From Phycisphaerae bacterium (GTDB lineage: Bacteria > Planctomycetota > Phycisphaerae > Sedimentisphaerales > Anaerobacaceae): a stretch of DNA of 40,921 bases. Positions 15,789 to 28,754 of the stretch are shown in pieces. The notes under the pieces are model-generated. The model was given only the letters and a program-made list of their open reading frames with translations. It was not told the DNA's origin and made no database searches. The stretch is from NCBI GenBank assembly GCA_026386805.1, contig JAPLMX010000069.1, positions 1 to 40,921 of the forward strand, in the 5' to 3' direction. Numbering within the stretch: the first letter of the stretch is position 1; each line of letters starts with the position of its first letter. Position numbers and translations under genes: made by a program.

Positions 15789-16049
15789 TCAACAACGTGC
15801 GAGAAAGAACCACGAGAGCAAGAGGGTCATAGCCCCCGAGACGAGGAGCATCACAATGGCGTACGTTTTGCGCTGATCGGCCATGACGCCCATCACGCTG
15901 AACACCAAGGCCACCGGAGGGCACGTCAGTAGCAGGAACCCTGCAAGGGCTCGCCACGAACTGCTTCAGCTTGGGCTCAGCACGAGCATCAGAATGACAG
16001 ATAGCCCCGCTGCCGCGAGGACCTTCGCCGCAATCCTGCCGTAATGCAT
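15789..16049 (-). CDS. Small membrane selenoprotein B (3 TM, predicted Sec28)
   Basis: This gene is invisible if UGA is read only as stop. From the ATG at 16049 (AAAGGA ribosome site 6 bases upstream) the frame runs 86 codons to UGA at 15789, with one internal UGA at 15966-15968 (codon 28). The product has three hydrophobic segments: about residues 6-25, 33-56 and 63-83. The Sec lies in the first loop (LSPSUSSSW). The second loop (MADQRKTY) is positive, so the Sec loop is predicted to face outside the cytoplasm. It is an ungapped paralog of the protein encoded at 16078-16335, sharing for example [YF]G[RK]IA, the UGA position, the L-G-L-L pattern after it, and [DR]-R-K before TM3. It follows that gene by 28 bases. 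I do not recognise the family. Confidence 0.8.
15936..15952 (-). promoter_or_regulatory. SECIS-like hairpin of membrane selenoprotein B
   Basis: Stem GAGCCC pairs with GGGTTC (one G-U pair) around the 5-nt loop TTGCA, which begins 19 nt after the UGA. A lower AGCAG/CTGCT stem can form outside it. The loop has GC where the other candidates have GU. Confidence 0.5.
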
Positions 16050-16077
16050 CCGCGGTCCTTTCCACGAACCCGCCCTT

Positions 16078-16335
16078 TCAACCGAGACCGTTCCATAACA
16101 GGGTCAAGAGCAGGAATCCGCCGGCGATGGCCGCCATGAGCACGGCCAGCCACTTACGCCGGTCGTGCATGATTCCCAACGTGGCGAAAACCCCGGCCAG
16201 CGAGAACGAGACCATAATCAAGAGCCCTACAAGGGTTCTCACCGGGCTGTGTCAGCCAGGTGCAAGATAGTTAAGTGCGGCAACGGCCGCACCGCCGATC
16301 AGGAACATCGCCGTGGCTATTTTGCCGAATTTCAA
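16078..16335 (-). CDS. Small membrane selenoprotein A (3 TM, predicted Sec28)
   Basis: The start is TTG at 16335, 6 bases after a perfect AGGAGG, and 35 bases after the selB stop. The frame runs 86 codons to UGA at 16078, with one internal UGA at 16252-16254, again codon 28. The 85-residue product has three hydrophobic segments (about 6-25, 34-56, 62-82), Sec in the first loop (LAPGUHSPVR) and a positive second loop (HDRRKW), which predicts an N-in topology with the Sec outside. Its paralog downstream aligns without gaps and has UGA at the same place although the DNA differs widely. Conservation of a nonsense codon at one site in two diverged copies is hard to explain unless it is read as Sec. 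The operon position after selB supports this. Family unrecognised. Confidence 0.83.
16222..16240 (-). promoter_or_regulatory. SECIS-like hairpin of membrane selenoprotein A
   Basis: Stem GAG, a two-base AA bulge, then CCC pairs with GGGCTC around the loop TTGTA. The loop contains GU and starts 19 nt after the UGA. The bulged stem recalls the E. coli fdhF SECIS. Confidence 0.6.
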
Positions 16336-16370: not shown

Positions 16371-18353
<1,983 letters not shown>

Positions 18354-18477: not shown

Positions 18478-19893
18478 CTACTCTCCAGCCGCCGAGGCCG
18501 CTACGACGGCCTCAACAATGATCGCGTCGTCACCATCCCGCAGCGTGCGGGGATCGATCAGGACTTGATCGTTCTGAATCCGGGCAAAGACCGGGGGCTC
18601 GTGCAGCCGTAGACGCTTGGCCAACACGTCTACACTGATCTTCTGGGGCGTGATTGCCACGAGCGTTGTCGCCAGGTTCTGCGTGGGCAGTGAGCCGCTG
18701 CCCATCTCGGAAAAGCCGCTCGTGGTGGTCACCGTCGCGGCGATGCTCTTGTCGCGAATCTGCGATGCCAGCCGCTCCGCGTGCTCTCGGATACTCTCCG
18801 GGCTGCGCCGGAGCATCTGGAGCGTCGGCACTTCGCGCAGCGCGGTGCTCTCGTCCAGGAACAGTTCGAGCGTTGCCTCCAGGACCGCCAGCGTCAGCTT
18901 GCCCACCCGGACGATCCGGGCGAACTGGTTCTTCCGCACGGCGTCGATCAGGATCTTCTTGCCCAAAATGAGACCGGCCTGAGAGGCGCCGATCAGCTTG
19001 TCGCCGCTGCACGTGATAATATCCGCGCCCTGGCGGATCGAGTCCGCCAGCAGGGGCTCGGGCTCAAATCCGAACTGCGAGAAATCGATCAGTGCGCCGG
19101 CGCCCACGTCGTCGATCATCACGAGATTGTGCTTACGCGCGATGGCCACGAGCTCATCGAGCGGGACCTCCGAGGAGAACCCCTGGATCTTGTAGTTGCT
19201 CGGGTGCACGCGGAGAATCGCGGCCGTGTTCTCCGTGATGGCGTTTTCATAGTCGCGGGGGTGGGTTTTATTGGTCGTGCCGACCTCGACCAGCCTGGCC
19301 CCGCTGAAGGCCATCACCTCGGGCAGGCGAAAGGAGCCGCCGATCTCGACGAGCTGGCCCCGCGAGACGATCACCTCTTTGCCCTTGGCGACCGAGTTGA
19401 GCACAATGGCCGTGGCGGCGGCGTTGTTGTTCACGACGGTAGCCGCCTCGGCGCCCGTCAGCCGCTGGAGCAGCCATTCGATCCGCTCATCGCGCCGAGA
19501 CCGCTTTCCGGTCTGGCGATCCACCTGGAGCAGGGAGTAGCTTCGCAGCGTCTGCTGAATCTGGTCGAGTGCTTTGACGGGCAGGACCGCCCGGCCGAGG
19601 CCGGTATGCAGGATGATCCCGGTGGCATTGACCGCCCGCTGGTAGTAGGGCTTCATCATAGCCTCAAGCCGGCCCTTGGCCGCCGCCACGATGCGGCCTC
19701 GAATCGCCGCCTCATCCATATCAAACGCAGGCTGGGCCATGAGCTGCCGGCGGACCTCTTCGACCGCCTCGCGGACCGCATCCGCCACCGGCCTTCGCCC
19801 GTACTCCGTCGCCAGCGTCTCCAACTCCAGCTCCTTCAGAACCGCATCAACGGAAGGGACCCTGCGCATCAGTGGTCGGACTTGTGCATCCAT
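18478..19893 (-). CDS. selA: L-seryl-tRNA(Sec) selenium transferase SelA
   Basis: A 471-residue PLP enzyme, the usual family length. It converts Ser-tRNA-Sec to Sec-tRNA-Sec using selenophosphate. Family marks are the N-terminal tRNA-binding region (MRRVPSVDAVL), NATGIILHTGLGRAVL (about 89-104), VNNNAAATAIVLN, HPSNYKIQGF, MIDDVGAGALIDFS and CSGDKLIGASQAGLI, where the Lys of SGDK is the PLP lysine. The C-terminus (LATTLVAITPQKISVDVLAKRL) is also typical. It is divergently oriented from the small selenoprotein gene at 20109. Its likely promoter lies at 19995-20022, and selB follows in the same direction. Confidence 0.97.
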   Translation of the reverse strand: MDAQVRPLMRRVPSVDAVLKELELETLATEYGRRPVADAVREAVEEVRRQLMAQPAFDMDEAAIRGRIVAAAKGRLEAMMKPYYQRAVNATGIILHTGLGRAVLPVKALDQIQQTLRSYSLLQVDRQTGKRSRRDERIEWLLQRLTGAEAATVVNNNAAATAIVLNSVAKGKEVIVSRGQLVEIGGSFRLPEVMAFSGARLVEVGTTNKTHPRDYENAITENTAAILRVHPSNYKIQGFSSEVPLDELVAIARKHNLVMIDDVGAGALIDFSQFGFEPEPLLADSIRQGADIITCSGDKLIGASQAGLILGKKILIDAVRKNQFARIVRVGKLTLAVLEATLELFLDESTALREVPTLQMLRRSPESIREHAERLASQIRDKSIAATVTTTSGFSEMGSGSLPTQNLATTLVAITPQKISVDVLAKRLRLHEPPVFARIQNDQVLIDPRTLRDGDDAIIVEAVVAASAAGE

Positions 19894-20108: not shown

Positions 20109-20657
20109 ATGAAGAAAAAAGATCTGCTGCGTGCGGCTGGCCTTGTCGCGCTTCTTCTTATCCTACTGTTCCTATTCCTTAAGAACCCGGTTCCAGGGTC
20201 TAAGCCGGGGGTTTCTACGCTAGCCGGCGGGCCGTCGTCGTCCGTATCCCGAACCGATGCGAACGGGGTGGCCTGGGCGCTCGATCAGGCCGGTGGGACC
20301 CTCCTCTCGATGGAACCCAACGCCCCGAAAGCGGGGCCGCCCATCCTGGTGAAAGCGGATGTCCAGAAAGTGGGGGATCGCGAGATGTCGATCGGGCTGG
20401 TCTTGGAGGGCCAGGCCGGCGAGCAGTATCGGCCGGTGGTCAAGAAAAACGGATCGCCGCTGTCGGCTCCCCGGCTGCGGATCGTCAACGAGGCGGGCCA
20501 AGTGATGGCCCAGGACAGTTTCCAGTATGGCTGAGGTGGCACCTGCCGGTACTCGTGGCGAGTACCAAACGATTTCACGGGCAAGTACCAGGTCCAGGTG
20601 GACATCGACCTCGGTCCGATCCAGGTCCAGCACGACCGGCCCTGGCACTCCCTGTAG
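20109..20657 (+). CDS. Membrane-anchored selenoprotein with U-G-G-T-C motif (predicted Sec142)
   Basis: Reading the UGA at 20532-20534 as Sec extends the frame by 40 codons to TAG at 20657, giving 182 residues. An N-terminal membrane anchor (AAGLVALLLILLFLFL, residues 9-24) is followed by a low-complexity linker and then a beta-rich domain from about residue 65. The segment around the Sec reads FQYGUGGTCRYSWRVP. The part after the UGA is clearly coding, because the neighbouring gene at 20762-20947 encodes the same motif with its own UGA at the equivalent place. A perfect hairpin lies 14 nt after the UGA. The Sec and Cys (U-x3-C) could form a selenylsulfide on the outer face of the membrane. 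Family not recognised; redox role inferred. Confidence 0.85.
20548..20566 (+). promoter_or_regulatory. SECIS-like hairpin of the first U-G-G-T-C selenoprotein
   Basis: Stem GGTACTC pairs perfectly with GAGTACC around loop GTGGC, which begins 20 nt after the UGA and starts with GU. The copy at 20835-20853 changes both strands of the stem yet still pairs. Confidence 0.75.
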
Positions 20658-21047: not shown

Positions 21048-21851
21048 ATGAAGAGCGTCAAAGGAATTGGTTTGGCCGACGTGCAGGCGGTCTACGGCGG
21101 GCCGGAAGGCCGGCTGTGGGAACTGATTATGGGCGAGCAGATCCATATCGGGGGTTTTGTCTCTTCCATGGACTTGGCCCAGCAAGCCGGCATCGGGGCC
21201 GGAACCAAGGGCGTCGATCTGTGCTGCTGCAACGGGGCGGGAATGCGATTTCTCGTTCGCTTCCGCAATGTCGCCGGTATGACCGGCGTGGACGCCACCG
21301 AGACGGTCGTCGAGCAGGGCCAGCAGCGCTGCCAGCAGGCCGGCCTGGCCGACAAGATCCAGTTCACTCTCGCCGACGTGTGCAGCAGCGGGCTCAAGAG
21401 CAGCAGCGCGGATTTCGTGTGGGGTGAAGACGCGTGGTGCTACGTCGTGGACAAGACCAAGCTGATTGCCGAGGCGGCCCGGATCGTCAAGCCGGGCGGG
21501 ACCATCGCGTTCACCGACTGGGTCGAGGGCGATAGGGGCCTTTCGCAGCCGGAGGCCGAACGGTACCGGCGGTTCATGAAGTTCCCGAACGTCCAGACGA
21601 TTGGCGGATACAGCGATCTGCTCAAGGCCAATGGCTGCGATGTGCTCATCGCCAAGGGCACCGGCCGATTCGCACCGTATGTGGACCTGTATCTGAATAT
21701 GCTCGGCATGCAGTTGGCCTACGACGCCCTGAAGATCATCGGCTTTGACCAGAATCTGATGGGTGCAATGGCAGGGGAGATGGCCTTCATGCAGCAGTTG
21801 TCCCACGCGGGCAAGATCGCTCAGGGCCTGTTTGTCGCACGAAAGAGATGA
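21048..21851 (+). CDS. SAM-dependent class I methyltransferase
   Basis: A 267-residue protein; the ATG at 21048 has GGAGAG 6 bases upstream. Class I motifs are visible: motif I as VDLCCCNGAGMRFLVRF (near residue 60), an acidic motif II (TGVDATE), and a later EAARIVKPGGTIAFTDW typical of the post-IV region. Three consecutive Cys in motif I and more in LADVCSSG and EDAWCYVVD make it Cys-rich. It is the first gene of a tightly packed operon with three dehydratase-like proteins, their activator ATPase and selD; the next gene starts 4 bases after its stop. The substrate is unknown. A metalloid (Se or As) or a small organic acid is possible by context only. Confidence 0.82.
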   Translation: MKSVKGIGLADVQAVYGGPEGRLWELIMGEQIHIGGFVSSMDLAQQAGIGAGTKGVDLCCCNGAGMRFLVRFRNVAGMTGVDATETVVEQGQQRCQQAGLADKIQFTLADVCSSGLKSSSADFVWGEDAWCYVVDKTKLIAEAARIVKPGGTIAFTDWVEGDRGLSQPEAERYRRFMKFPNVQTIGGYSDLLKANGCDVLIAKGTGRFAPYVDLYLNMLGMQLAYDALKIIGFDQNLMGAMAGEMAFMQQLSHAGKIAQGLFVARKR

Positions 21852-21855
21852 TGCA

Positions 21856-23151
21856 ATGGGAAACTGCTTCGATAGCAAAGACATCAAGATCAACGCGAGC
21901 GATCCGTGCCATCCGCCGCAGTGTGGCGCCCTCGGCCCTGGTAGGGCGAGCGTCCCCGCTCGCCAAAGAGCGTCGTGCGGGGACGCACGACCTACCGCGG
22001 ATAGTCCGCCAGCCTGGTTTGAGGGGATGATCCGCAATTGTCTGCAATATGCCTGCGAAGCCAAGGCCAAGGGCAGGCACATCGTTGGCATCCTGTGCGA
22101 GTACACGCCCCGGGAGCTGATCATGGCGGCGGATGCGGTGCCGGTCTGCCTTTGCGGCGGCTCGGCGGAGATGATCGGGCCGGCCCAAGAGCACCTGCCG
22201 GCCAACCTCTGCCCGCTCATCAAATCGACCTACGGGTATCACGTCCAGAAGGCTAACCCCTTTCTGGAAATGGCGGATATGGTCGTCGCTGAGACCACCT
22301 GCGATGGCAAGAAGAAGATGTACGAGCTAATGGCCGAGACCCGTCCGATGTACGTGTTGGAATTGCCGCAAAAGCCGAACGATGCCGATGCGATGGCCCA
22401 CTGGGTCCGCGAGCTGCGCAAGCTCAAGACCCGGCTCGAAAAGGCGTTTGGCGTCACGATCACCGACGAGAAGATGCGGCAGGCGATCCGGACGATGAAT
22501 CGCGAGCGGGCCCTGCGGCGACAATTGGCGGAACTGATGAAGTCCGATCGCCCGCCGCTGACCGGCCGGCAGTTGCTTCAATTCAAGAGCAACATCTCCT
22601 GCATTTGCGCCGACGTTGCCCAGTACCGCCGGGCGTTGGAGTTGTATAAGCCCGTATCTGCAGAGGAATCGGTGGGGCAAGCCCCACCCTACCAGATTCG
22701 GGTATTGATGACGGGTGTGCCGGTGGTGCACGGCGCCGAGCGGGTGGTCGAGATCATCGAATCGCATGGCGGTCTGGTTGTGTGCATGGACAACTGCACG
22801 GGACTCAAGCCGATTCTCGAAGATGTCGATGAGACGGCGGCCGACCCAATGGTCGCCCTGGCCGAGAAGTACTTTCGGCTGCCGTGCTCGGTCATGACGA
22901 AAAACAGCCGGCGGCTGGACGTTCTGACGGAATTGGCTCGGCAGTACCAGGCGCAGTGCGTGATCGACCTCGTCTGGCAGGCGTGCCTCACGTATGATGT
23001 CGAGTCCTACTTCGTCAAGAGACTGGCGGAGACGGACCTCGGCATTCCGTACCTGCGGATCGAGACGGACTATTCGCCGTCCGATTCCGCGAGGATCGCC
23101 ATGCGAGTCGAGGCCCTGTTCGAGACCGTTCGTCAAAGGGCGTCTGCGTGA
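21856..23151 (+). CDS. Double-cubane-cluster anaerobic reductase (YjiM/HgdB-like)
   Basis: A 431-residue member of the 2-hydroxyacyl-CoA dehydratase superfamily, closest in pattern to E. coli YjiM and the double-cubane-cluster protein (DCCP) branch. Conserved signatures are GILCEYTPRELIMAADAVPV (C81), ANLCPLIKSTYGY (C119), VAETTCDGKKKMYELM (C149), MDNCTG (C314), RLPC (C344) and VWQACLTYDVES (C377), so six Cys can hold the double cubane. Known relatives take electrons from an ATP-driven activator and reduce small or acyl-CoA substrates. The matching activator is at 25468. Start ATG 21856 lies just after the methyltransferase stop. Two in-frame palindromic repeats occur at residues about 29-46 and 272-279. 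Confidence 0.9.
   Translation: MGNCFDSKDIKINASDPCHPPQCGALGPGRASVPARQRASCGDARPTADSPPAWFEGMIRNCLQYACEAKAKGRHIVGILCEYTPRELIMAADAVPVCLCGGSAEMIGPAQEHLPANLCPLIKSTYGYHVQKANPFLEMADMVVAETTCDGKKKMYELMAETRPMYVLELPQKPNDADAMAHWVRELRKLKTRLEKAFGVTITDEKMRQAIRTMNRERALRRQLAELMKSDRPPLTGRQLLQFKSNISCICADVAQYRRALELYKPVSAEESVGQAPPYQIRVLMTGVPVVHGAERVVEIIESHGGLVVCMDNCTGLKPILEDVDETAADPMVALAEKYFRLPCSVMTKNSRRLDVLTELARQYQAQCVIDLVWQACLTYDVESYFVKRLAETDLGIPYLRIETDYSPSDSARIAMRVEALFETVRQRASA
21941..21995. repeat. In-frame palindromic repeat inside the YjiM-like gene (first)
   Basis: The element is bounded by GTAGG and CCTAC with two hairpins (GGCGAGCGTCCCCGCTCGCC and GTCGTGCGGGGACGCACGAC). It is translated as part of the N-terminal extension. 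Confidence 0.75.
22671..22692. repeat. In-frame half repeat inside the YjiM-like gene (second)
   Basis: GGTGGGGCAAGCCCCACCCT matches the right half of the intergenic element at 8169-8222 and is translated as VGQAPPY. Confidence 0.7.
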
Positions 23152-24092
23152 GTACGGCGGATCGGATGAAGACCATCGCCTATACGTGTCCCTATGTGCC
23201 GGCGGAGTGGATCGCCGCTCACGGGTTGCGGGCCCGACGGTTGGTGCCACTGCCCATCGAGGGGACATCCACCATTCCGCGGATTGAGGGGCTTTGTCTG
23301 TATGCGCGGGCCTTTGTCAACGACGTGGCGGCGAGCGATGATGTCAGTGGCGTCGTCGTCACGACGATGTGCGACCCAATGCGGCGGGTCTTCGATCTGC
23401 TGGTCCGCAGGGTCGATACACCGGCCTTTCTGCTGAACGTGCCGAGCACCTGGCAGACCGTGGCCGCCCAGAGGTTGTACTTGGACGAGTTGAAACGGCT
23501 CGGCCGGTTCCTGGTTCGGCTCGGCGGACATGAACCGGATAAGGAGGAACTCATACGCGCAATGCTCGATCAGGCACATGGCAATGGTGTGCACGGCACA
23601 GGGTTCCCCAACGCGATGAATCGCGTTGGGGGGCCCACACCCTACGGCCACGGCGTGCCCCTCGCTCTCGTGGGCGGTCCCTTGATGCTGCGGGACCGGG
23701 TCCTGTTCGACGTGATCGCCGATTGCGGCGGGCGGATCGTGCTCGACGCCACCGAGACGGGGCAGCGGGGCGTGTGCGGACCGTTCGACCGCCGGCGGCT
23801 TGCCGAAGACCCGCTGATGGAGTTGGCCCAGGCGTACTTCCGTCTCCCCGACGCCTCCCGGCGCCCGAACAGCGAGCTCTACCGATGGCTCAAAGATCAG
23901 TTGGCGCAGTCCGGCGCTCACGGCATCATCTTCCATCACTACGTCTGGTGCGACAAATGGCGTGCTGAATTCGCGCGGTTGAAGGAATGGGCCAACCTGC
24001 CGGTGCTCAGGCTCGATAGCGAAGGTGACGGTCCGATCGACATGGTCCGGACCCGCAATCGGGTCCGCGCGTTTATGGAGATGTTTCAGTGA
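23148..24092 (+). CDS. Divergent 2-hydroxyacyl-CoA dehydratase-like (HgdB family) subunit
   Basis: A 314-residue protein whose GTG start overlaps the preceding stop (GTGA), suggesting coupled translation; an ATG at 23166 is an alternative. It resembles the HgdB fold in order of motifs: AYTCPYVPAEWI near the N-terminus, VVTTMCDPMRRVFD (near 80), the GGPLMLRD region (near 180), GGRIVLDATETGQRGVC, and a C-terminal HHYVWCDKW followed by LPVLRLDSEGDGP. The Cys in TCPY, TMCD, RGVC and WCDK could ligate an Fe-S cluster. It is shorter and more diverged than the YjiM-like partner, so it may be the second half of a heterodimer. An in-frame palindrome supplies residues about 152-166. Confidence 0.8.
   Translation: MSTADRMKTIAYTCPYVPAEWIAAHGLRARRLVPLPIEGTSTIPRIEGLCLYARAFVNDVAASDDVSGVVVTTMCDPMRRVFDLLVRRVDTPAFLLNVPSTWQTVAAQRLYLDELKRLGRFLVRLGGHEPDKEELIRAMLDQAHGNGVHGTGFPNAMNRVGGPTPYGHGVPLALVGGPLMLRDRVLFDVIADCGGRIVLDATETGQRGVCGPFDRRRLAEDPLMELAQAYFRLPDASRRPNSELYRWLKDQLAQSGAHGIIFHHYVWCDKWRAEFARLKEWANLPVLRLDSEGDGPIDMVRTRNRVRAFMEMFQ
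23601..23643. repeat. In-frame palindromic repeat inside the second dehydratase-like gene
   Basis: Arms CCCCAACGCGAT and ATCGCGTTGGGG are translated as FPNAMNRVGG. Related copies lie at 3500-3540 and 36753-36824. Confidence 0.7.
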
Positions 24093-25471
24093 ACGAGGCG
24101 CCCCGACAGATCACGCTCCGGGAGTGGGACGACCGCTACGAGCGATTGCAGACTCGCGGGGTCCGCCAGCCGGTGTATGGCGGTCCGCTCGGCCGGCACG
24201 TGGCCGATGGCGACACCCGCCTGCTGAAGCTGCGCTACGACAGTTCGCTGGCGGCACTGCGATTGTGGAACTTTCTGCTGACGGAAGAGGACCGCCTTCG
24301 TGCCGCACGGGACGCCGGCAAGAAGCTGGTCGGTACGATGAAGGACCTGGGCACGGTTCCCGTGATGGCGTACAGCCTCGACAATCTCGTTGCCTTCTAT
24401 CCGGACGGGGCCTGGTGGATTCCGTGCGTGATGGAGGTGAACTCCGGATTGCTGCAGATTGCCGATTCCCTCGGCATCGACGAGTCATTCTGTCCGGTTC
24501 GCGCCATGCTCGGGGCCTTTGTGACCGGGACGCACTTTCCGATCCCGGACCTGCTGACGTGCAGCGTCGGTGCGACGTGCGACGATTTCTCCGCCATCGC
24601 TCAGCGTCTCAACGGCCTGGGCCACCCGATCCTGTGGTGGGAAATCCCGCATCGGCGTGCGCCCGAGGTTGAGGAAGAGGCCGTCCAACTGCCTGGCGAT
24701 TTCTCGGCCCCGAAGGGCCAGATCGAGTTCGTCCAGTCGGAGCTGGAACGCGTCAAGACCGCATTGGAGGATTTGGCCGGACAGTCTCTCGGCGCTGAGG
24801 CACTTGCCGGAGGAATTGCCAAGGCCAATCACGTTCGCTGGCTGCTGGCCCAACTTCGGCACTTGGCGTTCACGGCGACGTTGTGTCCGATGCCGGCTCT
24901 GGAGATGCTTATTGCGGAGATGCTGGCAATTCACTTTTGCTCGGATCAGGATGAAACGATTGTTGTTTTGCAGGAATTGTTGGAGGAGGTCAACCTTCGT
25001 GTGGCGGCCGGGACAGGGTATTCGTCGGCGGACGCCGCCCGCGTTTTCTGGGTGAACCCCGTGGCGGACTTGCAGGTGATGAACTTTCTGGAAGACTGCG
25101 GCGGTCGGATTTGCGGCACAGAGTACCTCTTCGCCCATGCCCTGGACCCGATTCCGCAAACCGTACCTCCCATGGAGGCGCTGGCACAAATAGCACTGGC
25201 CGATCCGATGGTCGGCTCGGCGGCCGACCGGGCGGTGCGGATCGTCGCGGAGGTTCGCCGATTCGGCGCGGAAGCGGTGATCGTCTCCCGCATTCCCGGC
25301 GCGAGCCACTGTGCCCTCGAGGGCGAGATTATCGGCGAGATTGTTCGCCAGGAGTGCGGGCTTCCTGTACTGGAAATCGAGGTGCCGCCGCTTACGGACG
25401 CCATGTCTCCGACGCTGCGCACCCGGCTAGAGGCACTCGTGGAAACTGTTGAAAATCGGAGAAGCAGATGA
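24089..25471 (+). CDS. Third dehydratase-like (HgdB-superfamily) protein, highly diverged
   Basis: A 460-residue protein with a GTG start overlapping the previous stop. Segment order is compatible with a 2-hydroxyacyl-CoA dehydratase fold: SFCPVRAMLGAFVTG (near 132), LTCSVGATCDDFSAIAQRL (near 155), a helical middle (220-320), FWVNPVADLQVMNFLEDCGG then RICGTEYLF, and the late VIVSRIPGASHCALEGEII followed by GLPVLEIEVPPL. Cys in FCPV, LTCS, ATCD, EDCG, ICGT and SHCA are candidate cluster ligands. No close family is recognised. Translational coupling on both sides places it in the same complex or pathway as the two upstream subunits and the activator. Confidence 0.72.
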   Translation: MNEAPRQITLREWDDRYERLQTRGVRQPVYGGPLGRHVADGDTRLLKLRYDSSLAALRLWNFLLTEEDRLRAARDAGKKLVGTMKDLGTVPVMAYSLDNLVAFYPDGAWWIPCVMEVNSGLLQIADSLGIDESFCPVRAMLGAFVTGTHFPIPDLLTCSVGATCDDFSAIAQRLNGLGHPILWWEIPHRRAPEVEEEAVQLPGDFSAPKGQIEFVQSELERVKTALEDLAGQSLGAEALAGGIAKANHVRWLLAQLRHLAFTATLCPMPALEMLIAEMLAIHFCSDQDETIVVLQELLEEVNLRVAAGTGYSSADAARVFWVNPVADLQVMNFLEDCGGRICGTEYLFAHALDPIPQTVPPMEALAQIALADPMVGSAADRAVRIVAEVRRFGAEAVIVSRIPGASHCALEGEIIGEIVRQECGLPVLEIEVPPLTDAMSPTLRTRLEALVETVENRRSR

Positions 25472-26250
25472 TGTACGCGGGAATTGACGCGGGCTCGCGA
25501 GCGATCAAGGTGGTCTTGATCGGTGACGACGGCTTCGAAATCATCGCCCAGGGGCAGGTAGACCAGGGCGTCGAGCAGGATCAGCTCGCGTGCAGACTTT
25601 TCGAGCAGGTCTTGGCGGATGGCGGTGTCTGCCGGTCCGACGTGCGCCGAATCGTCGCGACGGGCTACGGCCGCAACGCTATCCCAATGGCCGACACGAC
25701 GATCACCGAGATCACGTGCCACGCCGTGGGTGTGCGGCATCTCGTGCCCGATGTCATGACCGTCATTGATATTGGCGGCCAGGATAGTAAGCTGATGCGA
25801 TTGGATCGAAACGGCAAGGTCCGCGACTTCGCCATGAACGACCGCTGTGCCGCAGGGACGGGGCGGTTCCTGGAGGTCGTGGCCGATCAGCTTGGCCTGT
25901 CTCTCGGCGACCTCGGGCCGATGGCCGCCCTCAGCCGCAGCCCTGCGGCGATCAGCAGTATGTGCGTCGTCTTCGCCGAGACCGAGATCATCGGCCTGCT
26001 GGCGGGCGGCCGGGCCCGCGAGGATATCGTCGCGGGGGTCCAGACGGCTATCGCCTCGCGGATCGTCGCCATGGCCGGCCGGAATGCCGAGTCGCCGATC
26101 GTCTTCACCGGCGGCGTGGCCCGAATCTCGGGCATGGAGACCGCGTTGCAGACGGCTCTCGGCCGGCCGGTCGCGATATCGCCGGAGCCTCAAATGACGG
26201 GCGCCCTCGGCGCCGCGCTGCTGGCGCGACGGCAACATGATTCCTACTGA
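25468..26250 (+). CDS. Dehydratase/double-cubane activator ATPase (HgdC/YjiL family)
   Basis: A 260-residue ASKHA-fold ATPase. It holds one [4Fe-4S] cluster between two subunits and, on ATP hydrolysis, passes low-potential electrons to its partner. Motifs are YAGIDAGSRAIKVVLI (phosphate 1), VATGYGRN, TEITCHAVG, VIDIGGQDSK (phosphate 2), AMNDRCAAGTGRFLE with C127, MCVVFAETEI with C166, and FTGGVAR. C127 and C166 sit where the cluster ligands of the Acidaminococcus HgdC occur. The ATG overlaps the preceding stop (ATGA). It is a single ATPase serving up to three dehydratase-like proteins. selD begins 47 bases later. Confidence 0.95.
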   Translation: MMYAGIDAGSRAIKVVLIGDDGFEIIAQGQVDQGVEQDQLACRLFEQVLADGGVCRSDVRRIVATGYGRNAIPMADTTITEITCHAVGVRHLVPDVMTVIDIGGQDSKLMRLDRNGKVRDFAMNDRCAAGTGRFLEVVADQLGLSLGDLGPMAALSRSPAAISSMCVVFAETEIIGLLAGGRAREDIVAGVQTAIASRIVAMAGRNAESPIVFTGGVARISGMETALQTALGRPVAISPEPQMTGALGAALLARRQHDSY

Positions 26251-26261
26251 CCGATGGCGTT

Positions 26262-26297
26262 GTCATGCTGAACGCAACGAAGTGGAGTGAAGCATCG
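26262..26297. repeat. Repeat providing the selD leader
   Basis: TGTCATGCTGAACGCAACGA through GGAGTGAAGCATC matches the right end of the element at 10575-10680. It forms the whole spacer before selD, including the GTGGAG that may act as the ribosome site. Confidence 0.6.
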
Positions 26298-28028
26298 ATG
26301 ATCAACATGGAACGACGAAAACGCGTCATGCAACGGTCCATCCGGCTGGGTCACTGCATTTGTGACCCGAAGCAGCCGTGCCCGTGCCCGCTATTCAAAG
26401 AGAAGAACGTCTGCTCGTGCGCCGGCGAGCGGCTGGAGAGTCCCACCGGCAGCGTGCGATTGACAAAGCTCGTGGAAAAGGCGGGCTGTGCCTCGAAGAT
26501 CGACCAAGCGTTTCTCAAGAAGGTGCTGGCGGATTTGCCCGCCAGCGACGATCCCCGCGTCTTGGTCGGCGTGCCGGCCGGGGACGACGCCGGGATCTAC
26601 GACATGGGTAACGGCCAGGCCCTCGTCCAAACGGTGGACGTGTTTACGCCTGCCGTAGATGACCCGTACACGTTCGGCCAGATCGCCGCCGCCAACTCGG
26701 TCAGCGATGTCTATGCGATGGGCGGCGTGCCGATGACGGCGCTTTCCATCGTGGGTTTCCCGGTTCGATCGATCCCGGATGAAGCTCTGTTCCAGATCCT
26801 GGCCGGCGGGATTGACAAGATGAAGGAGGCGGGCTGCGCCATCGTGGGCGGCCACAGCATCAATGACGCCGAGATCAAGGCGGGTTTCGCCGTCACGGGG
26901 ATGATCGACAAGGATCGCGTCGTCACTAACGCCGGGGCCCTGCCGGGCGACGCGCTGATCCTCACCAAGCCACTCGGGACCGGCATCGTGGCCTTGGCCG
27001 CCCAGATCGACCGGGTCAAGCCAGAAAGCATGGCAGCGGCCGCCGCATCCATGACCGCGCTGAATAAGACGGCCTCGGAACTGATGGTTCAGTTCGGCGC
27101 TCACGCCTGCACCGACGTGACCGGTTTCAGCCTCATGGGCCATCTGGCCGAAATGGCCCGATCCAGCGGCATGGATGTCCAGATCGTCTGGGATGATCTG
27201 CCGTTGTTTGAAGGGGTGCTCGACTACGCTGCCGCCGGAATCCTGCCCGGCGCGATCGAACGAAACAAGGAATCCTGTAGCGACCGCGTGGTTACGCCGG
27301 CGACGCTTCCCCAGGAGATGGTCGATATCTGCTACGACGCCCAAACGTCCGGCGGTCTGCTGATCGCGATAGAGCAGGAAAAAGCAGCCGATCTCCTCAA
27401 GGCCCTCCGCGATCGCGGCATATCGGCCGCGGCCGTCATCGGCAACGTCACGGCCAAAGGCACCGGCCTAATCCGCCTGGAAACCACGGGCAAACGTGAG
27501 ATTCCCGCGTTCAAGTCCATCAAGGCGACGGAGCCATCGCAATCATCCATCCAGGACGTTCCCTGCTGTGCGGACGCCGTCAGCACTGTGGCGCCCTCAT
27601 CGTGGCGAGGGCGTCCCGCCCTTGCGTCGCGAGGCCATCCCTTCGACTTCGCTCAGGGCAGGCTTGGCCTTGCTTCGCCAAGCCACGACGCACCTGTGAC
27701 GGCCGAGCAGCAAGGGCAAGATGCCCTCGCCACGGCGGCTGGGCCGCAGGCTGGCTCGGAAATGGACCAAGTGAAGGCGACGTTCCAGCAGTTCCTCAGT
27801 GCGGCCGGCTCGCCGCATGGCTTGGACGCCTACACGAAGCAGGCGACGGCGATAGCTCTATCCGTAGCGCTGCGCTGCGAGCCTTGCCTGAAGATGCACC
27901 TGAAGAACGCCCGGCAAAAAGGCTTCACTCAGGCCGAAGTCGACGAGGCCGCCTGGATGGGAATCAGCTTCGCCGGCTCACCGGCGATGGTCTTCTATGA
28001 GAATGTGAAAAGAGAGTGTGAAGTCTGA
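26298..28028 (+). CDS. selD: Selenophosphate synthetase SelD with six-Cys N-terminal extension and AhpD-like C-terminal domain
   Basis: SelD makes selenophosphate from selenide and ATP. The core (about residues 55-410) has VRLTKLVEKAGCASKI, with the catalytic Cys and Lys (the second Cys of the usual GCGCK is Ser here), AGDDAGIYDMG, VDVFTPAVDDPYTFGQIAAA, VSDVYAMGG, VGGHSINDAE and CTDVTGFSLMGH. Before it is a Cys-rich segment patterned CxC-x5-CxC-x8-CxC, likely metal- or selenium-binding. After the core, residues about 435-479 come from an inserted palindromic element. Residues about 488-576 then form an AhpD/carboxymuconolactone-decarboxylase-like domain with the CEPC motif (RCEPCLKMHLKNAR). 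Normal SelD has about 350 residues; this has 576. The start is uncertain (26298, 26307 or 26331). Confidence 0.93.
   Translation: MINMERRKRVMQRSIRLGHCICDPKQPCPCPLFKEKNVCSCAGERLESPTGSVRLTKLVEKAGCASKIDQAFLKKVLADLPASDDPRVLVGVPAGDDAGIYDMGNGQALVQTVDVFTPAVDDPYTFGQIAAANSVSDVYAMGGVPMTALSIVGFPVRSIPDEALFQILAGGIDKMKEAGCAIVGGHSINDAEIKAGFAVTGMIDKDRVVTNAGALPGDALILTKPLGTGIVALAAQIDRVKPESMAAAAASMTALNKTASELMVQFGAHACTDVTGFSLMGHLAEMARSSGMDVQIVWDDLPLFEGVLDYAAAGILPGAIERNKESCSDRVVTPATLPQEMVDICYDAQTSGGLLIAIEQEKAADLLKALRDRGISAAAVIGNVTAKGTGLIRLETTGKREIPAFKSIKATEPSQSSIQDVPCCADAVSTVAPSSWRGRPALASRGHPFDFAQGRLGLASPSHDAPVTAEQQGQDALATAAGPQAGSEMDQVKATFQQFLSAAGSPHGLDAYTKQATAIALSVALRCEPCLKMHLKNARQKGFTQAEVDEAAWMGISFAGSPAMVFYENVKRECEV
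27602..27733. repeat. Composite palindromic repeat inside selD
   Basis: Ends GTGGCGAGGGCGTCCCGCCC and GGGCAAGATGCCCTCGCCAC are inverted copies. The 132 bases keep frame (44 codons) and form the linker between the SelD core and the AhpD-like domain. A smaller relative lies in the sugar transporter at 6328-6376. Confidence 0.75.
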
Positions 28029-28209: not shown

Positions 28210-28304
28210 GGAGGTGACTGGTGCCTGGTGGTGCCCCTGGTCTTCAAAACCAGTGTAGGGCCGAGAAGGTTCTGGGTGGGTTCGATTCCCATTCGCCTCC
28301 GCCA
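28210..28304 (+). tRNA. selC: tRNA-Sec, anticodon TCA
   Basis: The acceptor stem has 8 bp (GGAGGTGA with TCGCCTCC), longer than the usual 7 as in bacterial tRNA-Sec. The anticodon arm is CTGGT-CTTCAAA-ACCAG with TCA at 28244-28246, which reads UGA. A long variable arm lies between the anticodon and T arms. The T arm is GTGGG-TTCGATT-CCCAT. The CCA end is encoded (28302-28304). The total of 95 nt is normal for the family. The selD gene lies 181 bases upstream. Confidence 0.97.
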
Positions 28305-28729: not shown

Positions 28730-28754
28730 GTAGGATGGGCTTTAGCCCATGCGG
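28730..28754. repeat. Half copy of the GTAGGATGGGC repeat
   Basis: GTAGGATGGGCTTTAGCCCA matches the left arm of the repeat inside selB (16841-16916). Confidence 0.65.

What the first reader, a model, noticed from the sequence alone, without database searches (positions are those of the whole stretch)
15789..16335. Two paralogous 3-TM membrane selenoproteins hidden downstream of selB
Seen: on the minus strand after selB, two frames of 85 and 86 residues each contain one UGA, at codon 28 in both. The products align without gaps over their whole length ([YF]G[RK]IA at the start, Sec in the loop after TM1, a positive loop before TM3), although the DNA is diverged. Each has a ribosome site and a hairpin starting 11-13 nt after the UGA. 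Known: SelB decodes UGA only with such hairpins. Inference: a new family of tiny membrane selenoproteins with an outward-facing Sec, co-expressed with the insertion machinery. I know of no described family with this layout.
Basis: partly seen in the sequence, partly recalled or inferred. Interest (0 to 1): 0.94.

Follow-up and report, generated by a model that had tools for sequence, protein, structure and literature searches.

The report
Tiny membrane selenoproteins beside selB
Two small bacterial genes beside the machinery that makes selenocysteine each carry an in-frame UGA followed by a conserved RNA hairpin, as do relatives in dozens of genomes, so they likely belong to a new family of tiny proteins, predicted to span the membrane three times, that carry selenocysteine at one site and for which no cysteine version turned up.

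Summary
Observation confirmed. Behind selA-selB lie two frames (85 and 86 codons) with UGA at codon 28; ungapped, 27 of 85 residues match although the DNA is only 49% identical. They belong to an undescribed family, here called SelX. Of 148 related genomes (own included), 33 carry it, all with an in-frame UGA at the aligned site; in 26 of 33 a member starts within 290 nt downstream of the selB match. Purifying selection continues past the UGA. A hairpin follows with loop UUGNA in 36 of 36 members counted: 266 of 288 pair cells form (synonymous-codon control mean 181), and 7 of 8 pairs show changes on both sides. It fits the published bacterial SECIS model. SelB occurs in 31 of 33 carriers and 14 of 115 others. 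No Pfam or NCBIfam family covers it, and I recognised it in neither published catalogue (87 and 119 families). Unusually, no cysteine form was found: non-Sec relatives have Gly, Leu, Tyr or altered loops. Shown: conserved UGA, hairpin, linkage, selection. Inferred: Sec insertion, three membrane helices with Sec outside, co-expression. Biochemical function is open; most likely a membrane selenol redox or selenium-handling factor, with a Sec-supply read-out as the boldest alternative.

The parts
16078..16335 (-). selX1: 85-codon frame, TTG start, in-frame UGA at codon 28, stop TGA included in the coordinates
   Evidence: aligned with 30 other members in A1
16252..16254 (-). UGA of selX1, likely selenocysteine codon
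   Evidence: UGA at the aligned site in 33 of 33 carrier genomes
16221..16239 (-). hairpin stem and loop after the UGA of selX1 (loop UUGUA), predicted bSECIS
15789..16049 (-). selX2: 86-codon frame, ATG start, in-frame UGA at codon 28, stop TGA included in the coordinates
15966..15968 (-). UGA of selX2, likely selenocysteine codon
15935..15953 (-). hairpin stem and loop after the UGA of selX2 (loop UUGCA), predicted bSECIS
16371..18353 (-). selB, selenocysteine-specific elongation factor (TIGR00475 349 bits, cut-off 242)
18478..19893 (-). selA, selenocysteine synthase (TIGR00474 544 bits, cut-off 268)
26265..28028 (+). selD with an AhpD/CMD domain fused at the C-terminus (TIGR00476 369 bits, cut-off 125; PF02627)
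28210..28300 (+). tRNA-Sec (RF01852 74.7 bits, gathering 47)

Best explanation
SelX1 and SelX2 are two members of an undescribed family of 79-94-residue proteins whose genes keep an in-frame UGA and a co-varying hairpin behind it, mostly next to selB; the UGA is likely read as selenocysteine by SelB, and the product is predicted to be a three-helix membrane protein that would carry out selenol redox or selenium chemistry at the outer face of the membrane. Mechanism: (1) selA-selB-selX1-selX2 would be one transcript (inferred from strand, spacing and conserved order). (2) SelB with Sec-tRNA(Sec) would bind the UUGNA-loop hairpin at +13 to +31 and insert Sec at codon 28 instead of terminating (inferred; the machinery, hairpin and covariation are shown). 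(3) The chain would sit with its positive N-terminus and positive second loop inside, leaving the PGU[G/S][N/S]P loop outside (predicted from K+R counts). (4) The selenolate, with no conserved cysteine partner, would react with an outside oxidant, a selenium species or a partner protein (inferred; the least certain step).
For: UGA at the aligned site in at least one copy in 33 of 33 carriers among 148 related genomes, and in 5 more genomes of a phylum sample of 392. pN/pS stays low after the UGA, beyond the hairpin: mean 0.18/0.46 against 0.15/0.41 before it, 14 pairs. Hairpin: 266 of 288 pair cells in 36 members; synonymous-codon control mean 181, maximum 202 of 2000; column-permuted control mean 238, maximum 255 of 2000; slid arms 112-161; 7 of 8 pairs with changes on both sides, covariation score 0.559 against 0.234 in shuffles; MFE at or below -7.5 in 35 of 36. 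Three copies without UGA keep 6, 0 and 5 of 8 pairs. SelB in 31 of 33 carriers and 14 of 115 others; tRNA-Sec over the cut-off in 24 of 33 and 14 of 115. In 26 of 33 a member starts within 290 nt downstream of selB. selA, selB, selD and tRNA-Sec are in the window. Three helices and positive-inside pattern.
Against: No experiment. No cysteine form was found, unlike nearly all known selenoproteins, and some relatives keep the scaffold with Gly, Leu, Tyr or an altered loop, so the selenol may not be the essence of the fold. No conserved cysteine partner. 14 of 45 SelB-positive relatives lack SelX, and 6 of 33 carriers do not have it next to selB in the stretch held. The co-occurrence P values are not corrected for relatedness. 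The structure model is of middling confidence (pLDDT 67, pTM 0.35) and matches nothing in PDB. In the own genome 1 of the 98 other sites of the pattern search also scored 7 pairs.
Confidence: 0.78

Rival explanations
1. Sec-supply read-out. The UGA works as a gate: with ample Sec-tRNA the full three-helix protein is made, and with little only a 27-residue single-helix peptide. Sec would matter as a signal of supply rather than as a catalyst, and the product would report selenium status at the membrane, perhaps to the selAB operon.
For: Place behind selB; no Cys form found; scaffold kept with other residues at the site in a few relatives; UGA and hairpin kept with great constancy.
Against: The PGU[G/S][N/S]P surroundings are conserved, which is not needed for a mere gate; no regulatory partner or target site was found; carriers exist in which selX is far from selB (G044, G110, G121, G129, G146).
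Confidence: 0.12
2. Selenium carrier or uptake helper. The outward selenol would bind or reduce a selenium species and hand it to the Sec machinery encoded in the same locus (selD, double-cubane reductases).
For: Same locus as selA, selB, selD and tRNA-Sec in this window; selenium-linked membrane proteins such as YedE are known (PMC5322559 passages).
Against: Too small for a transporter on its own; no homology to YedE or other transporters; Sec would be needed to acquire selenium, which is circular at first supply.
Confidence: 0.2
3. Read-through without selenocysteine: another amino acid (Trp, Gly) would be inserted at the UGA by suppression or a changed code.
For: Some relatives have Gly at the site (P0003, P0018, P0019); gene callers reading UGA as Trp give an open frame (P0010-P0012; that these are UGA is inferred, no DNA seen).
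Against: 20 of 30 members end on UGA, so UGA is a stop in the same genes; the co-varying hairpin and the tie to SelB and tRNA-Sec are unexplained.
Confidence: 0.03
4. Pseudogenes or assembly errors: the UGA is a nonsense mutation or a base-calling error.
For: The window is a contig of a draft assembly of 279 contigs, and decayed second copies exist in relatives G002 and G003.
Against: The same UGA recurs in 33 genomes with selection after it and a paired stem behind it.
Confidence: 0.01

Closest known systems
Catalogued prokaryotic selenoprotein families (119 in Table 1 of PMC13188914, 87 in Table 1 of PMC9312934)
   Same: In-frame UGA with a downstream hairpin that fits the bSECIS model, in a genome with selA, selB, selD and tRNA-Sec.
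   Different: None of the listed families was recognisable as this one; most have Cys homologs and redox motifs such as UxxC or CxxU, which this lacks. Entries with Pfam or NCBIfam models were tested through those libraries; entries without a model could not be compared by sequence.
Membrane selenoproteins or subunits in the catalogue (YeeE/YedE, MerT, SaoP permease, SO_0444 Cu/Zn efflux transporter, P-type ATPase)
   Same: Integral membrane proteins with one Sec.
   Different: Recalled as larger transporters or metal-binding proteins; no match of SelX to their Pfam or NCBIfam models.
FdhA as the usual resident client next to selAB (PMC4807772 section 17; PMC13188914)
   Same: A selenoprotein gene tied to the Sec-insertion genes.
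   Different: SelX is a tiny predicted membrane protein; the FdhA model TIGR01591 finds nothing in this genome.
Eukaryotic small membrane selenoproteins SELENOK and SELENOS (recalled, no call)
   Same: Small membrane proteins with one Sec in a short exposed segment.
   Different: Recalled as single-pass with Sec near the C-terminus and the SECIS in the 3' UTR; no sequence comparison was made.

Membership tests
Bacterial selenoproteins decoded by SelB | In-frame UGA with conserved coding on both sides | tested here: met
   33 of 33 carriers keep UGA at the aligned site in at least one copy; pN/pS low on both sides
Bacterial selenoproteins decoded by SelB | bSECIS hairpin: loop 3-9 nt, upper stem 4-16 bp, G in the first two loop positions, 16-37 nt from UGA to loop, MFE <= -7.5 (PMC13188914 section 5) | tested here: met
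   Stem of 7-8 pairs in 34 of 36, loop UGN closed by U-A in 36 of 36, 20 nt from the UGA; MFE met in 35 of 36
Bacterial selenoproteins decoded by SelB | Sec machinery in the genome | tested here: met
   selA, selB, selD, tRNA-Sec in the window; SelB in 31 of 33 carriers, and a second carrier without SelB match (G129) has tRNA-Sec; G065 has neither
Bacterial selenoproteins decoded by SelB | Homologs with Cys in place of Sec (usual, not universal) | tested here: not met
   None among 34 database hits, of which I read 22, nor in the loci read; word-based searches could miss rare ones
Bacterial selenoproteins decoded by SelB | Selenium shown in the protein | not testable with these tools
   Needs 75Se labelling or mass spectrometry
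Any of the catalogued selenoprotein families with a Pfam or NCBIfam model | Match to the family model | tested here: not met
   31 members scanned; best NCBIfam E 0.00085 (a drug-efflux model, 1 member), TcpD_dom in 5 members at best 0.0027; best Pfam 0.013 (1 member)
Three-pass membrane protein, Sec outside | Three hydrophobic helices and a positive-inside pattern | tested here: inconclusive
   Helices 2-24, 31-57, 61-84 at mean pLDDT 67; K+R means 1.58 (N-terminus), 0.58 (loop 1), 2.74 (loop 2) over 31 members; no topology experiment

The most novel reading that the evidence does not exclude
SelX is an obligate selenoprotein built into the Sec operon itself, in which the UGA, not a replaceable thiol, is the point: its full synthesis reads out Sec supply, and the outward selenol or the truncated helix tells the membrane and the selAB operon about selenium. 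That would explain why no Cys form is seen and why the gene sits behind selB.
Probability: 0.12. Interest if true: 0.92.

Novelty: new variant of a known kind. Interest (0 to 1): 0.76.

Why it matters
It would add a selenoprotein family of a sort that current methods tend to miss: no cysteine homologs for Sec/Cys-pair searches, short, and present in protein databases mainly as 45-54-residue pieces (22 of 34 hits). It gives a client that travels with the insertion machinery in a genome where the FdhA model tried finds nothing, which bears on what keeps the Sec trait in bacteria. And it gives a set of 36 hairpins with the loop UUGNA and rich covariation for testing how SelB reads SECIS elements.

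Tried and rejected
Pfam and NCBIfam on 2 and then 31 members gave scattered weak matches. Foldseek against PDB: 16 matches at E <= 10, none at E <= 0.001. RNA model R1 in the own genome: the two selX hairpins, then one hit at E 7.2. Pattern search for the same UGA-to-loop spacing in the own genome: 109 matches against 91 for the reversed control, 100 sites listed; of the 100 distinct sites I had sequence for, 3 had 7 or more pairs: the two selX and one other in a frame with no recognisable protein. So no other gene with this exact arrangement is convincing; selenoproteins with other hairpins were not searched for, apart from FdhA. In the loci around carriers and SelB-positive relatives plus the window, a scan for UGA + UUGNA hairpin in an open frame gave 40 sites, 36 of them selX, one beside a decayed copy in G003, three apparently chance. 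Four named genomes and 297 genomes of the phylum of a Deltaproteobacteria MAG: no match, without a positive control. Literature searches; nothing describing this family was seen in their listings or in the passages and sections read. The library holds open PMC papers only.

Rows dropped before counting 33 carriers: G047, G053, G069, G081, G112 (E 0.0002-0.009; four without a UGA; G081 a partial match with one UGA and one UAA). From the phylum search six were dropped: G201, G265, G317, G363, G437, G515 (weak, inside longer frames or with UAA). For the hairpin count 5 of 41 members were set aside (L114, L116, L117, L118, L167: shifted or distant); at their best offset within -3 to +6 they score 8, 8, 6, 8 and 6 of 8. 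A2 has 35 of the 36 counted members.

Full report
What is there. The window holds a full selenocysteine set: selA and selB on the minus strand, and on the plus strand selD fused to an AhpD/CMD domain and tRNA-Sec. Behind selB come two frames, 35 nt and then 28 nt apart, of 85 and 86 codons, each with UGA at codon 28. They align without gaps, 27 of 85 residues and 125 of 255 bases identical.

Is it more than chance. Each frame was searched, UGA read through, in 148 related genomes, the own one included. SelX2 matched 36 of 148 and SelX1 34 of 148 at E <= 0.01. After dropping five genomes with weak matches (named in Tried and rejected), 33 carry a member, and in 33 of 33 at least one copy has UGA at the aligned site. 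In the alignment of 31 members the Sec site, G54 and D58 are invariant; lengths run from 79 to 94 residues. Of 392 genomes sampled from the phylum, 14 matched, two of them already counted (G000, G110); five more have the UGA (G178, G239, G272, G385, G418), one has Tyr (G457), and six were dropped as weak. In a database of 5.8 billion proteins two searches gave 7 and 27 hits; 22 of these 34 are 45-54-residue pieces, and the ones read begin after the UGA. Three longer ones have Trp at the site and at the place of a terminal stop (P0010-P0012), most simply UGA read by a gene caller with another code (inferred; no DNA seen).

Translation past the UGA. Over 14 pairs, mean pN and pS are 0.15 and 0.41 before the UGA, and 0.18 and 0.46 from 37 to 150 nt after it, beyond the hairpin. 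Of 30 members with the end in view, 20 end on UGA, 7 on UAA and 3 on UAG, so UGA also serves as a stop in these genes.

The hairpin. At +13 to +31 after the UGA a stem of 7-8 pairs (34 of 36 members) holds a loop UUGNA (36 of 36). In 36 members 266 of 288 pair cells form. Drawing synonymous codons at random gives a mean of 181 (maximum 202 in 2000), permuting codons within each column among rows with the same residue gives 238 (maximum 255 in 2000), and sliding the 3' arm by 1 to 3 gives 112-161. On 35 sequences, 92.5% of cells pair against 76.3% in shuffles, the covariation score is 0.559 against 0.234 (0 of 500 shuffles), and 7 of 8 pairs have changes on both sides. The shuffles do not correct for relatedness; the slid controls do (39-56% paired). 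RNAalifold finds seven of these pairs unaided. Three copies without UGA keep 6, 0 and 5 of 8 pairs. The hairpin fits the bSECIS model given in PMC13188914 (section 5 read): if U20-A24 pair, a 3-nt loop with G in second place, 20 nt from the UGA, MFE at or below -7.5 in 35 of 36.

Link to the Sec machinery. SelB (E <= 1e-60) is in 31 of 33 carriers and 14 of 115 others; tRNA-Sec over its cut-off in 24 of 33 and 14 of 115 (Fisher P 9e-19 and 5e-11, not corrected for relatedness). In 26 of 33 carriers a member starts within 290 nt downstream of the end of the selB match on the same strand (in G077 the first copy there is the Leu form and the Sec copy follows). In G144 it is about 2.2 kb downstream. 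In G044, G065, G110, G121, G129 and G146 it is not next to selB in the stretch held. Outside the order, G178 and G239 keep selB-selX, G418 has selX just before selB, and G457 has the Tyr form near tRNA-Sec, selA and selB; in G272 and G385 no selB lies in the stretch held. Against an obligate link: 14 of 45 SelB-positive relatives lack SelX. For 12 of the 14 the DNA at the selB end was fetched, and the family HMM found none apart from one 10.7-bit antisense match in G090 (in G060 the contig ends within 50 nt). In the phylum sample SelB is common, 230 of 392, so SelX marks a subset; among 29 SelB loci of that search scanned with a widened HMM only G178 and G239 rang.

Paralogs. Tandem copies occur in G000, G006, G074 and G077 (one with Leu, codon TTA), and decayed second copies lie in G002 and G003. 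In the tree SelX1 joins G003 (100/97) and SelX2 joins G002 (100/96), so the two look like older, separate lineages rather than a recent duplicate (11 of 32 inner branches are drawn open).

No cysteine form. Selenoproteins nearly always have Cys homologs (PMC13188914 section 8; PMC12013277 passages). Here none appeared, although the search profiles carry Cys at the site. Non-Sec relatives have Leu (L103), Gly (P0003, P0018, P0019), Tyr (L119) or altered loops (L100, P0013-P0017). I read 22 of the 34 database hits. The searches score only candidates sharing short words, so a rare Cys form could be missed.

Structure and function. AlphaFold gives three helices at mean pLDDT 67 and pTM 0.35; Foldseek finds nothing at E <= 0.001 in PDB. 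K+R means of 1.58 (N-terminus), 0.58 (loop 1) and 2.74 (loop 2) over 31 members predict N-inside and the Sec loop outside. There is no conserved Cys; 3 of 31 members have none. Function is therefore inferred: a selenol at the outer face, made together with the Sec machinery. I put the selenoprotein identity at about 0.95 and a redox or selenium-handling role at about 0.6; the Sec-supply read-out is the main alternative.

Known or new. Over 31 members no Pfam or NCBIfam family is consistent; the best are a drug-efflux model at E 0.00085 in one member, TcpD_dom in 5 of 31 at best 0.0027, and Pfam at best 0.013. Table 1 of PMC9312934 (87 families, section read) and Table 1 of PMC13188914 (119 families; section 7, parts 1 and 2 of 3 read) list no family recognisable as this one. 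GOS_A to GOS_C have Cys homologs (PMC2398784, passages). PMC4807772 section 17 treats planctomycete Sec genes without such a protein in its text; its supplementary tables were not seen. PMC5322559 and PMC1273633 were seen in passages.

Noticed in passing
21763-26250 (+): Three genes of the double-cubane / HGD-D reductase kind (NF040772 427 bits for the first; the others PF06050) and a CoA_E_activ activase lie between selA and selD; relatives of them sit near the Sec genes in several other loci. A 2-hydroxyglutaryl-CoA dehydratase subunit and an activase near Se genes were already listed for Slackia (PMC5322559, passages)..
   Followed up: partly
26265-28028 (+): SelD is fused to a C-terminal AhpD/CMD domain, right before tRNA-Sec; relatives of the fusion lie near tRNA-Sec in other loci (for example L109, L164, L166, L168)..
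   Followed up: partly
20109-20534 (+): A 141-residue protein with no Pfam or NCBIfam match, whose relatives (sometimes two) lie divergently upstream of selA in many selX loci..
   Followed up: partly
16840-16917: A 26-nt inverted repeat (arms 16840-16865 and 16892-16917, 96% complementary) sits in frame inside selB; the SelB matches of G005, G006 and G007 break between residues 478 and 504, as an insertion would give. Further copies of the 24-nt arm lie at window 28730-28753 and in other G000 and G008 loci..
   Followed up: partly
L081 9971-10300 (G002) and L082 5422-5700 (G003): Second selX copies that look decayed (frame broken) but still show a GGUCCUUGCAGGAUC hairpin.; described only.
   Followed up: partly
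L103 9451-9690 (G077): A tandem selX copy with Leu (TTA) at the Sec site next to a UGA copy; its hairpin has 6 of 8 pairs..
   Followed up: partly
L119 (G457): A distant member with Tyr at the Sec site lies between the selD relative and tRNA-Sec, followed by selA and selB..
   Followed up: partly
whole genome G000: The FdhA model TIGR01591 has no match in the own genome and no further UGA hairpin of exactly this arrangement was convincing, so the other clients of the Sec machinery here are unknown..
   Followed up: partly
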